Source: Anabaena sp. UHCC 0204 (GTDB lineage Bacteria; Cyanobacteriota; Cyanobacteriia; Cyanobacteriales; Nostocaceae). Taken from it: a DNA stretch of 64,000 nucleotides. The stretch lies in contig NZ_VIKW01000019.1 in the NCBI RefSeq assembly GCF_009711975.1, forward strand, positions 1-64,000, in the 5' to 3' direction. How positions within the stretch are numbered: position 1 is the first letter of the stretch; each line of letters begins with the position of its first letter. This document shows, piece after piece, positions 26,987 through 29,363 of this stretch. Under the pieces are notes generated by a model that searched no databases, had not been told where the DNA came from, and was given only the letters and a program-made list of their open reading frames with translations. The position numbers and the translations under genes were made by a program.

Positions 26987-27775
26987 CTATTTTTTCACTA
27001 TTTGTAACCGTTGAGTGATGATTGTCATATCGTCTCCTCTGCGAATTACGGCGGAAATCCACTGAGTACCGGGTTTTGCAGGTGCGCGGCCTATTTTGAA
27101 GAGTCCCCCAGCATTGAGAAATTCTAAATTTACGGTTGTGGGGGTGAGAAACTTATTAGCTTGAATGGGTTCTTCTATGGCTTTTCCTAAAAGAATATCC
27201 TGACCTAATGGTTCTTGCACAATGGCATCAAAGCTATATTTTTCACCAACTTTTACCTGTTGTGGTAATCGAATATCTACTTGGGGTGCTTTACTTCCAG
27301 TTGTTAGTTGTGTACGTTCAGATAAAATATCTTGACGCACGATTTTTGAGCCTGTGACTCGTTGACGGGATTTAATTGTAGACTGGAGAGTTAGATTATT
27401 GCTGTTTGGTGAGGGTACACCACTAATACTCGTAACTGTTTCGGCAATAATTGTATTACCTTCCGATTTCCAAGATTCTAGGCGCGTAGTGTAACGCAGT
27501 TGAGGATATCGCTTCCACAGTCCTGTTAAAGCTTGTTCCATGCCTTTGCGGTTTAATCCGTCGCCATGGGTAAATGTAGGACTGTAGAATTGCATTACAC
27601 CGTTGACATTACGTTGATTAGCGGCGTTGTCAATCTGACTGAGGAGATTAGTAAGTCCAGCGGGTGCATTTTGGGGTTTATTTGCTTGAGCAATCTGCCA
27701 AGTGCTTGATAAACTCATTGTCAGCAAACAGGAAAACAGGGAAATACCAACGGATAATACTTTGTTACGTTTCAT
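26987..27775 (-). CDS. secreted NTF2-like / SnoaL-fold protein
   Basis: A 262-aa protein with an N-terminal signal peptide (MKRNKVLSVGISLFSCLLTM..., cleavage probably after QANA-like AQA near 31). Next is an NTF2-like domain (about 40-150: LSQIDNAANQRNVNGVMQFYSPTF cut here, then QALTGLWKRYPQLRYTTRL). A C-terminal beta-rich domain (170-262) follows, with VDIRLPQQVKVGEKYSFD resembling an immunoglobulin-like fold. Found in many cyanobacteria without assigned role; periplasmic or lumenal. Followed by the SDR gene after about 90 bases. Confidence 0.75.
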   Translation of the reverse strand: MKRNKVLSVGISLFSCLLTMSLSSTWQIAQANKPQNAPAGLTNLLSQIDNAANQRNVNGVMQFYSPTFTHGDGLNRKGMEQALTGLWKRYPQLRYTTRLESWKSEGNTIIAETVTSISGVPSPNSNNLTLQSTIKSRQRVTGSKIVRQDILSERTQLTTGSKAPQVDIRLPQQVKVGEKYSFDAIVQEPLGQDILLGKAIEEPIQANKFLTPTTVNLEFLNAGGLFKIGRAPAKPGTQWISAVIRRGDDMTIITQRLQIVKK

Positions 27776-27798
27776 AAGACCTTGCGGTAAGTGGGAAA

Positions 27799-28204
27799 CT
27801 CAGCGTCTTTAGACCTGAGAGGGAAGCGGCACGAGCGATTTTAATCGCCGTGGTCTTTGTCTTTGTGTTAAGATGTGGTTGTGAGTAGGAATAACTGTCT
27901 ACGTGTTGAGACATCCTAGTATCGGAGAAATCCCGGCTCCCATGAAACAACGGTTAGGTTTAAGTCCTAACGACAGTATGACAAGAAAGAGCGAGCAATG
28001 GCAGGTTGTGGAGCGTACCGTATCTTGGCTGAGTGATGGACTCTGAAAGCACCAAAATGATAAAAGTAGCTAGAAACCTAAGCTAGACTTAGGATGACTA
28101 GGTAGACGGCGTTTGACGGTCGTAACGAGAATTAGACTTTGGGTAATATCCTTAATCTAATTCTGTCAGCAGAATCTCATTGTCTTTAGACCTGAGACTG
28201 TCAA
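27799..28204 (+). ncRNA. candidate orphan OMEGA/HEARO-type RNA with IS200/IS605-like hairpins
   Basis: No ORF of note here, but the sequence is strongly structured. A hairpin CTCAGCGTCTTTAGACCTGAG (27799-27819) and a second one at 28175-28197 (TCTCA/TGAGA arms) share the core GTCTTTAGAC, as does the hairpin at 54527-54547. The second is followed by GTCAA, like the right end of IS200/IS605 elements. Between them, 27940-28165 contains CTAAGCTAGACTTAG, an ATTAGA...TCTAAT hairpin and GGTAGACGGCGTTTGACGGT, reminiscent of HEARO (IscB-associated omega) RNAs. No iscB or tnpB is present. The family call is from memory of the motif and needs a covariance search. Confidence 0.5.
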
Positions 28205-28289
28205 TAGTAAGATTTTACTGATTTGATGATAGAAGATAAGGAATTTGTTTTATCTTAATGAAGCTGGGCGATAAATGGTATAGCAGGGA

Positions 28290-29363
28290 ATGGTAAATGC
28301 TCCAATTAGATTACTTATAGCAGCTAGTGGGACGGGTGGACACTTGTTTCCCGCGATCGCATTAGCTCAAAAACTGCCAGAATACGACATTGAATGGCTG
28401 GGTGTACCAAATCGCCTAGAAACTCATCTTGTCCCTGGGCAATACCCCTTAAATACGGTTGCTGTTGAGGGTTTTCAGCAAGGTTTGAGTCTGGCTTCTG
28501 TACGCATTTTATTAAAACTGATAGGTTCGATTCTGTCCGTAAGACGTATTCTTAAACAAGGAAAGTTCCAAGGAGTATTCACCACTGGGGGTTATATTGC
28601 TGCCCCTGCGGTGATTGCGGCGCGTTCTTTGGGTTTACCTGTGATTTTTCATGAATCTAACGCCATACCCGGTAAAGTTACCCGCTTTTTTGGTCCTTGG
28701 TGTAATGCAGTAGCTGTGGGTTTTGATGTTGCTGCTCAATACTTACCTCGGACTAAAATCGTCTGTGTCGGTACTCCCGTGCGATCGCAATTCCTAGATA
28801 ACACAATTGATAGCCCCCTAGACTTGCCTATTCCTGATCATGTTCCCCTAATTTTAGTTTTCGGTGGCAGTCAAGGGGCTGTAGCGATAAATCAATTAGT
28901 ACGTCAGTCAGCGGCTGCTTGGTTTCAAGCAGGTGCATACATAGTCCATTTAACGGGTGATAACGATCCAGATATCAACAGTCTTCAACATCCTCAATAT
29001 ATCGCCTTACCTTTTTACGACAATATGGCAGCGTTATTAAAACGGGCTAATTTAGCTATCAGTCGTTCTGGTGCTGGCAGTTTAACAGAATTGGCGGTGT
29101 GTGGGACACCAGCTATTTTGATTCCCTATCCCTTTGCAGCCGAAGATCATCAATCTTACAATGCAGATGTGTTTACTAAGGCTGGTGCAGCTTTGACATT
29201 TAAACAGTCGGAGTTGACAACGGAAATATTGCAAACTGAGGTTTTGAATTTGTTGCAGTCTCCAATAGAATTAGCGAAAATGGGAGAGAGGGCAAAAGCG
29301 ATCGCCGTCCCCGACAGTGCCGATAAATTAGCAGCTTTAGTTAAAGAAGTTTTGGCAATTTAA
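28290..29363 (+). CDS. murG: UDP-N-acetylglucosamine--N-acetylmuramyl-(pentapeptide) pyrophosphoryl-undecaprenol GlcNAc transferase
   Basis: Peripheral membrane GT-B glycosyltransferase (GT28) that makes lipid II from lipid I at the inner face of the cytoplasmic membrane. The 357-aa length is normal. Signatures: IAASGTGGHLFPAIALA (G-loop 1), GGYIAAPAVIAA, HESNAIPGKVTRF, LVFGGSQGAVAIN (G-loop 3), and the UDP-binding ISRSGAGSLTELAVCGTPAILIPYP region cut here as SRSGAGSLTELAVCG. It is alone rather than in a dcw cluster, normal for cyanobacteria. Preceded by the candidate omega RNA region. Confidence 0.97.
   Translation: MVNAPIRLLIAASGTGGHLFPAIALAQKLPEYDIEWLGVPNRLETHLVPGQYPLNTVAVEGFQQGLSLASVRILLKLIGSILSVRRILKQGKFQGVFTTGGYIAAPAVIAARSLGLPVIFHESNAIPGKVTRFFGPWCNAVAVGFDVAAQYLPRTKIVCVGTPVRSQFLDNTIDSPLDLPIPDHVPLILVFGGSQGAVAINQLVRQSAAAWFQAGAYIVHLTGDNDPDINSLQHPQYIALPFYDNMAALLKRANLAISRSGAGSLTELAVCGTPAILIPYPFAAEDHQSYNADVFTKAGAALTFKQSELTTEILQTEVLNLLQSPIELAKMGERAKAIAVPDSADKLAALVKEVLAI

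What the first reader, a model, noticed from the sequence alone, without database searches (positions are those of the whole stretch)
27799..28204. Orphan OMEGA/HEARO-like RNA locus without iscB or tnpB, upstream of murG
Seen: about 400 bases with no gene but several strong hairpins on the plus strand. Two hairpins (27799-27819, 28175-28197) share the core GTCTTTAGAC with different outer arms, and the second is followed by GTCAA as at IS200/IS605 right ends. The region between holds CTAAGCTAGACTTAG, an ATTAGA/TCTAAT hairpin and GGTAGACGGCGTTTGACGGT. Family knowledge: HEARO RNAs are the omega guide RNAs of IscB nucleases, and stand-alone copies acting in trans are known. Inference: this is a non-autonomous OMEGA element or an RNA put to a new use, placed between a secreted-protein gene and murG.
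Basis: partly seen in the sequence, partly recalled or inferred. Interest (0 to 1): 0.78.

Follow-up and report, generated by a model that had tools for sequence, protein, structure and literature searches.

The report
Mobile stand-alone TnpB-type guide RNA
The 430-base gap beside murG is a small mobile element without a gene that carries a structured RNA built like the guide RNAs of TnpB DNA-cutting enzymes, and relatives of this RNA, each with its own built-in guide, are scattered through many cyanobacteria.

Summary
Window 27776-28204 is a non-autonomous IS200/IS605-type element: left end behind TCAT, right-end hairpin with a UUUA loop, terminal GTCAA. It is not HEARO: Rfam finds HEARO beside iscB in this genome and relatives, but nothing here. 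Its 3' third matches the 3' end of the genome's own tnpB element (81%) and keeps the TnpB omega-RNA scaffold, including a pseudoknot between a hairpin loop (GAC) and the 3' terminus (GUC) that covaries among copies. Upstream lies a 160-nt domain not found in tnpB genes, supported by compensatory changes (15 of 22 pairs) and preceded in 53 of 66 copies by an extended -10 box. A model of this domain finds it in 67 of 291 sampled genomes of the order, up to at least 10 copies each. No tnpB lies within about 2 kb of 40 further copies; two copies stand directly before a tnpB. Best reading: a family of stand-alone, mobile TnpB guide RNAs acting in trans. Expression, TnpB binding and the role of the 5' domain are untested.

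The parts
27776..28204 (+). whole non-autonomous IS200/IS605-type element
   Evidence: ends match G000:C32 tnpB element; many copies of similar length in G002, G004, G009, G011
27772..27775 (+). TCAT, insertion target and presumed TAM; complement of the ATGA at the start of the 262-aa minus-strand ORF
   Evidence: TCAT precedes the left end at the 15 distinct own-genome sites matched
27799..27819 (+). left-end hairpin, TTTA loop
27866..27874 (+). extended -10-like box TGTTAAGAT, 8 nt before the 5' domain
   Evidence: TGnTAnnnT in 53 of 66 copies, shuffled mean 5.0; generic sigma-70 scan finds no promoter here
27883..28044 (+). RNA 5' domain (P1, P2 and inner hairpins), model R1
28070..28101 (+). 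P3 hairpin (CTAG/CTAG and CCTAAG/CTTAGG), shared with tnpB 3' ends
28106..28123 (+). P4 hairpin; loop GAC 28115-28117 forms the pseudoknot with GTC 28200-28202
   Evidence: PMC10097598 section 9
28128..28164 (+). stem AGAATTAGA/TCTAATTCT (position of ISDra2 stem 3, by inference)
   Evidence: inverted repeat I3
28175..28197 (+). right-end hairpin, UUUA loop 28185-28188 at -20 to -17 as in ISDra2
28200..28204 (+). terminal GTCAA, right boundary
28205..28220 (+). presumed 16-nt guide TAGTAAGATTTTACTG; matches the element-free site of relatives behind TCAT with one difference at position 1
   Evidence: guide length from PMC8612924

Best explanation
The element is a nuclease-less IS200/IS605 passenger that encodes a stand-alone TnpB-type guide RNA. 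(i) The RNA starts near 27883 from its own promoter (inferred from a conserved -10-like box). (ii) It folds into a 5' domain, P3, P4 and the right-end hairpin, and its 3' terminus GUC pairs with the P4 loop GAC, giving the TnpB scaffold (supported by comparison). (iii) Transcription runs past GTCAA, so the first ~16 flanking bases become the guide (inferred from ISDra2). (iv) A TnpB made elsewhere, most likely the intact 440-aa protein on contig C32 whose element shares P3, P4 and the ends, binds it in trans (inferred). (v) The complex cuts TCAT-guide sites, that is, copies of the locus lacking the element, so that repair copies the element back (inferred from the ISDra2 model). Movement needs a TnpA; this genome has only weak or partial Y1 matches, relatives have full TnpA-TnpB elements. 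The 5' domain is extra: ISDra2 TnpB edits as well or better without its own 5' stretch, so the strong conservation here points to an added function.
For: Query 1-83 (87%) and 287-431 (81%) match the two ends of one 1.6-kb element with an uninterrupted tnpB in the same genome (Pfam OrfB_IS605 and Cas12f1-like_TNB). RNA 3' ends track the TnpB clade: window-type RNAs match clade-1 tnpB 3' ends at about 75-83%; a G056 RNA matches the clade-2 tnpB 3' end of its own genome at 96% and that of G031 at 90%. Pseudoknot: fully complementary in 51 of 59 copies called by script, permuted mean 43.4, maximum 48 in 5000, with GAC/GUC, GAU/AUC, GGC/GUC and GAA/UUC among the pairings. P3/P4 in 11 stand-alone and 12 tnpB sequences: 68 double-change cells against 22, score 0.504 against 0.200, 0 of 500. 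5' domain in 40 copies: 94.0% of cells paired, 15 of 22 pairs changed on both sides, score 0.393 against 0.201 shuffled and at most 0.085 slid. -10-like box in 53 of 66, 45 of them at 8-10 nt. Mobility: 7 equal-scoring copies in G535, four in G182. A related TnpB (E<=1e-60) is in 50 of 67 RNA-positive and 97 of 224 RNA-negative genomes, p 6.6e-6.
Against: No expression, binding or cleavage data. 17 of 67 RNA-positive genomes lack a TnpB at E<=1e-60 with this query (more distant TnpBs not counted), and the association is not corrected for kinship or genome size. 8 of 59 script-called pseudoknots fail and 7 of 66 copies were not called; by eye 6 of 66 lack full pairing. Some copies are near-identical, so the permutation treats them as too independent. 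A5 was fitted to the model, so its counts lean to the structure; the number of pairs with double changes (8 against 7.1) and of pair types did not exceed the shuffles. The generic promoter scan finds none in the window. Left and right flanks do not meet cleanly in relatives: 24 nt present there are missing here, and a second empty-site attempt with L053 was not clean.
Confidence: 0.74

Rival explanations
1. Decayed miniature element: an IS605 derivative moved by TnpA in trans, whose RNA is a relic or whose hairpins serve only as DNA ends.
For: Ends match a full element; shorter derivatives with left end plus 3' part only exist (L077), and a truncated one (L070); no expression data.
Against: The 5' domain was found in only one of 32 tnpB loci searched with R1, a composite, so simple deletion of tnpB does not produce it; pair covariation in 40 divergent copies, pseudoknot covariation and a position-conserved -10-like box imply selection on an RNA.
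Confidence: 0.12
2. Repurposed regulator: the RNA guides TnpB, or a cleavage-dead relative, to other chromosomal or invading sites, or controls neighbouring genes, rather than protecting its own copy.
For: Left ends of this element type sit at gene starts more often than chance (10 of 15 sites); L092 and L107 from two genomes share one insertion with the same flank, suggesting vertical retention; in L125 and L274 the RNA stands directly before a tnpB promoter region.
Against: The window guide matches its own element-free site in relatives, as plain retention predicts; other targets were not searched for.
Confidence: 0.1
3. HEARO / IscB omega RNA.
For: iscB elements of this genome share the outer end sequence in inverted orientation (L010, L015).
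Against: No HEARO hit at E<=10 on either strand with working positive controls; HEARO RNAs carry the spacer at the 5' end (PMC9755519, passage), whereas this RNA ends at a tnpB-type right end.
Confidence: 0.01
4. Cis-regulatory leader, terminator or self-splicing (IStron-like) RNA acting on one of the two flanking genes.
For: It lies between two genes; a terminator-like hairpin at 27835-27848.
Against: Copies lie beside unrelated genes in other genomes; no intron or riboswitch match in Rfam over the RNA in the copies scanned; same-genus relatives have the downstream flank without the element.
Confidence: 0.03

Closest known systems
TnpB omega RNA / reRNA of ISDra2 (IS200/IS605)
   Same: Right-end hairpin with UUUA loop at -20 to -17, terminus xxTCAA followed by flank, pseudoknot between the terminal triplet and a hairpin loop, insertion target directly upstream of the guide-matching DNA (PMC10097598 section 9; PMC8612924 passages).
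   Different: No tnpB in cis; a -10-like box of its own; a conserved 5' domain of about 160 nt and P3 in addition; TCAT instead of TTGAT.
HEARO / IscB omega RNA (RF02033), including the stand-alone trans copies reported for Ktedonobacter (the latter recalled, not from a call)
   Same: Nuclease-less loci of a transposon guide RNA as a concept.
   Different: No model match; spacer at the 5' end there, at the 3' end here; partner TnpB instead of IscB.
MITE/PATE-type derivatives of IS200/IS605 elements (names recalled)
   Same: Short, without protein, IS605-type ends, many copies.
   Different: Carry a conserved RNA with a domain not found in the tnpB-bearing element.
RAGATH-18-derived RNAs of IS607 TnpBs (PMC11061315, abstract and passages)
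   Same: TnpB guide RNAs first known as an RNA motif without assigned function.
   Different: IS607, with the tnpB directly upstream in cis; no RAGATH match in the Rfam scans here.

Membership tests
TnpB omega RNA (IS200/IS605) | 3' end formed by an IS right-end hairpin and terminal TCAA, followed by unique flank | tested here: met
TnpB omega RNA (IS200/IS605) | pseudoknot between terminal triplet and loop of a scaffold hairpin | tested here: met
   window GAC/GUC; 51 of 59 script-called copies; reference PMC10097598 section 9
TnpB omega RNA (IS200/IS605) | homology to the 3' end of a tnpB gene | tested here: met
TnpB omega RNA (IS200/IS605) | encoded at the 3' end of tnpB in cis | tested here: not met
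   none in the ORFs listed around the window element or within about 2 kb of 40 further copies; among 108 locus records, some overlapping, only L274 holds a tnpB, downstream of the RNA, and three records of one place hold a 32-aa remnant; L125 is a second RNA-before-tnpB case
TnpB omega RNA (IS200/IS605) | bound by TnpB and directing cleavage | not testable with these tools
   needs binding and cleavage assays
HEARO / IscB omega RNA | match to the RF02033 covariance model | tested here: not met
   window; 9 further RNA copies at the gathering score, 6 of them also at E<=10; positive control
HEARO / IscB omega RNA | located upstream of iscB | tested here: not met
   no iscB match in the 108 RNA locus records
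IS200/IS605 non-autonomous element | ends shared with a fuller element and a fixed short insertion target | tested here: met
IS200/IS605 non-autonomous element | clean element-free site without target duplication | tested here: inconclusive
   24 nt of the relatives' site are missing in the window; L053 attempt not clean
IS200/IS605 non-autonomous element | mobilised by a TnpA | not testable with these tools
   own genome: 4 weak or partial Y1_Tnp matches, best E 9e-10; TnpA beside tnpB in relatives
Group I/II intron or known riboswitch | Rfam match over the RNA | tested here: not met

The most novel reading that the evidence does not exclude
Cyanobacteria carry a dispersed guide-RNA system: a TnpB shared by many mobile guide RNAs with promoters of their own, each insertion writing a new guide. 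These RNAs have evolved a dedicated 5' domain, not found in the nuclease-bearing elements examined, that is used with more than one TnpB clade and gives the trans RNA a function of its own, such as out-competing cis RNAs for TnpB, recruiting another protein, or turning cutting into binding at chosen sites.
Probability: 0.35. Interest if true: 0.88.

Novelty: new variant of a known kind. Interest (0 to 1): 0.76.

Why it matters
TnpB guide RNAs are known as the tail of tnpB itself. Here the guide RNA appears as a mobile unit of its own, with a promoter-like box and a large conserved domain whose counterpart ISDra2 TnpB does not need. If it works in trans, one nuclease serves many transposable guides, a step proposed on the way from TnpB to Cas12 systems with separate RNA genes (discussion passage of PMC10097598), and it could be tested in living cyanobacteria. 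It would also add a family missing from Rfam 15 and account for well over a hundred intergenic stretches in the genomes sampled here (listing cut).

Tried and rejected
HEARO/IscB: rejected by cmscan with positive controls. A coding 5' domain: one frame of the window copy is open across much of it, but one-base length differences between copies (AGTATCGGAG against AGTA-CGGAG) shift the frame, so RNA is more likely than protein. 5' domain hidden inside tnpB: R1 on 32 tnpB loci finds only L125 (E 1e-32; the next best is E 0.5). Plasmid or phage origin: 5 of 72,556 plasmid records match parts and none covers 80%; the one phage record (CL131) shares left and right end but gives no R1 hit. Clean empty site: see membership test; insertion at the second TCAT followed by loss of 24 nt is my inference. 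TnpB against solved structures: no hit with the single sequence. Whether the TnpB catalytic residues are intact was only looked at by eye in six proteins. Literature: listings showed no stand-alone TnpB guide RNA family of cyanobacteria; the library lacks most subscription journals, and two likely relevant papers, cited in PMC11061315, are not held, so earlier description cannot be excluded. PMC12558985 was searched for stand-alone or non-autonomous wording without a match.

Full report
1. Observation. The interval was read directly. Folding of the single sequence is not decisive. Rfam finds only one tRNA in the whole window at the gathering score and one weak snoRNA match (E 3.8) at E<=10 in 27400-28600.

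2. It is a repeated element. In the same genome (5.74 Mb, 83 contigs) the whole stretch occurs once. Its left 83 nt and its last 145 nt match, at 87% and 81%, the two ends of one 1.6-kb element on contig C32 that carries a 440-aa TnpB (Pfam OrfB_IS605 and Cas12f1-like_TNB). Of 100 sampled relatives, 68 match the query or part of it, flank included, at E<=0.01; G002, G004, G009 and G011 hold copies that cover most of the element, several each (6 candidates per genome scored). The left end stands behind TCAT at the own-genome sites matched. In same-genus genomes without the element the site reads TTTCAT, 19 nt, GTCAT, then AAGTAAGATTTTACTG (for example L028, L035); the window reads TTTCAT, element, TAGTAAGATTTTACTG. 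So the right flank equals the DNA behind the second TCAT except for one base, and 24 nt are missing on the left. I read this as insertion at the second TCAT with later loss of the 24 nt; that is inference.

3. Not HEARO. The genome has three matches to the IscB N-terminal family RRXRR. Rfam HEARO is found beside iscB in 6 of 6 loci L150-L155 and, cut by the locus edge, in L010 and L015; L018 gave none but ends about 150 nt past its iscB match. The window and 9 further RNA copies (gathering score; 6 of them at E<=10) give no HEARO hit, and no listed Rfam match overlaps the RNA in them. IscB elements share the outer end sequence in inverted orientation (L010, L015).

4. The RNA. The middle of the element is not tnpB. 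It occurs as a block in other genomes in unrelated intergenic places. An alignment of 26 copies (42 found, 3 dropped as cut or odd, 39 reduced at 93% identity) gave a consensus with 36 pairs, 16 of them with double changes. A covariance model of the 5' domain (R1: 161 positions, 22 pairs) matches in 67 of 291 genomes of the order (29 of 121 genera) and in 31 of 386 genomes drawn from the phylum, with up to at least 10 copies per genome (the draws overlap and copies scored per genome were capped at 10 and 7). In 40 further copies from 34 genomes, 94.0% of cells pair, 15 of 22 pairs change on both sides, and the covariation score is 0.393 against 0.201 shuffled (0 of 500) and at most 0.085 for slid structures. 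That alignment was fitted to the model, so the counts lean towards it. An exact motif scan of the species-genome collection gave 29 stretches, all titled as cyanobacteria: Dolichospermum, Nostoc, Tolypothrix, Scytonema, Richelia, Microcoleus, Tychonema, Lyngbya and unnamed Oscillatoriales.

5. The 3' half is a TnpB scaffold. The best matches of RNA 3' ends to tnpB 3' ends are about 75-83% for the window type with TnpB clade 1, and 96% (own genome) and 90% (G031) for a G056 RNA with clade 2; the clade-2 proteins are 48-49% identical to clade 1. In 11 stand-alone RNAs and 12 tnpB 3' ends, P3 and P4 pair in 89.9% of cells with 68 double-change cells against 22 shuffled and a score of 0.504 against 0.200 (0 of 500), while the number of pairs with a double change (8 against 7.1) and of pair types (19 against 20.1) do not exceed the shuffles. 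For that set two tnpB ends (L141, L149) and L111 were left out, and L022 was placed by hand, 7 nt short. In ISDra2 the scaffold is 116 nt, bases -5 to -3 pair with a triplet in the stem-1 loop, a UUUA loop sits at -20 to -17, and removal of -231 to -117 leaves editing similar or higher (PMC10097598, section 9 read). In the window the UUUA loop is also at -20 to -17 and the terminal GUC matches GAC in the P4 loop. Over 59 copies called by script, 51 are fully complementary (G-U allowed) against a permuted mean of 43.4 and maximum 48 in 5000: GAC/GUC 40, GAU/AUC 7, GGC/GUC 2, GAA/UUC 1, GAU/GUC 1; 8 fail. Near-identical copies are in the set, so the permutation overstates independence. Seven of 66 were not called. 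By eye those seven pair, L213 and L216 failed through a wrong hairpin, L201 was called on a wrong one, and L073, L075, L100, L207, L217 and L224 stay unpaired. By eye the tnpB copies L144 and L145 have AAG/CUU, and L127 does not pair.

6. Stand-alone nature. TnpB of two clades gives no tblastn match in 40 loci of about 4 kb centred on further RNA copies. Over 108 locus records, some of them overlapping, queries for three TnpBs, IscB and TnpA hit one tnpB (L274, tnpB broken by stops) and a 32-aa remnant of one place present in three records. L125 is the second case; in both, the RNA element stands directly before the tnpB promoter region. An extended -10-like box TGnTAnnnT lies within 40 nt upstream of the 5' domain in 53 of 66 copies, 45 of them at 8-10 nt, against 5.0 (maximum 13) in base shuffles; the generic scan does not call it in the window copy.

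7. Partner proteins. This genome has one uninterrupted TnpB of clade 1 (C32), one uninterrupted (C54) and one interrupted (C3) of clade 2, and a fragment; Y1_Tnp gives 4 weak or partial matches, best E 9e-10, so no convincing TnpA. Across 291 genomes a related TnpB (E<=1e-60) is present in 50 of 67 RNA-positive and 97 of 224 RNA-negative genomes (p 6.6e-6, no correction for kinship). Six TnpBs share invariant D207, E342, E343 and D390; that one of these glutamates replaces the usual RuvC-II residue is a guess from recalled work.

8. Interpretation. Supported by comparison: mobile element, conserved structured RNA, TnpB-type scaffold and pseudoknot, no nuclease at the 5' side of its 3' end as in ordinary TnpB elements. 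Inferred: promoter use, read-through into the guide, TnpB binding in trans, cleavage of element-free sites. Unknown: what the 5' domain does. Since ISDra2 does not need its 5' extension, the conservation here is the real surprise.

9. Literature. ISDra2 TnpB (PMC8612924, passages) gives the retention model and the TAM rule. The listings held no paper on a stand-alone TnpB guide RNA family; the library lacks most subscription journals, and two cited papers (a 2017 RNA-motif survey and a 2023 TnpB classification) are not held.

Noticed in passing
own-genome left-end copies in L001-L020: TCAT before the left end is the complement of ATGA: at 10 of 15 distinct sites an ORF of at least 60 aa starts at that ATG, against 14% of 468 control ATGA (L005, L016, L019, L020 were not matched by the motif and dropped). 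By eye the genes include folD (L008) and dapB (L017), and the element end leaves AAGGTCTT before the start codon, like a portable ribosome-binding site.
   Followed up: partly
L125:1000-1500 and L274:1000-1500: Two composite loci in which an RNA element stands directly before a tnpB promoter region, so that the RNA's guide would come from tnpB's own upstream DNA.
   Followed up: partly
L294:2490-2866 (phage vB_AphaS-CL131): A cyanophage carries a similar protein-less IS605-type element with the same right end but a different middle that R1 does not match; possibly a second class of stand-alone guide RNA.
   Followed up: partly
L010 and L015 (own genome, iscB loci): iscB elements share the outer end sequence of the TnpB-type elements in inverted orientation, so TnpB, IscB and RNA-only elements may use one transposase and the same TCAT target.
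   Followed up: partly
window:27765-27776: In relatives the 262-aa gene could start 8 codons further upstream, at an ATGA that insertion and the 24-nt loss removed; the window keeps an internal ATG.
   Followed up: no
L077 (G056:C92): A shorter derivative consists of the left end joined closely to the P3-P4-right-end part, without the 5' domain.
   Followed up: no
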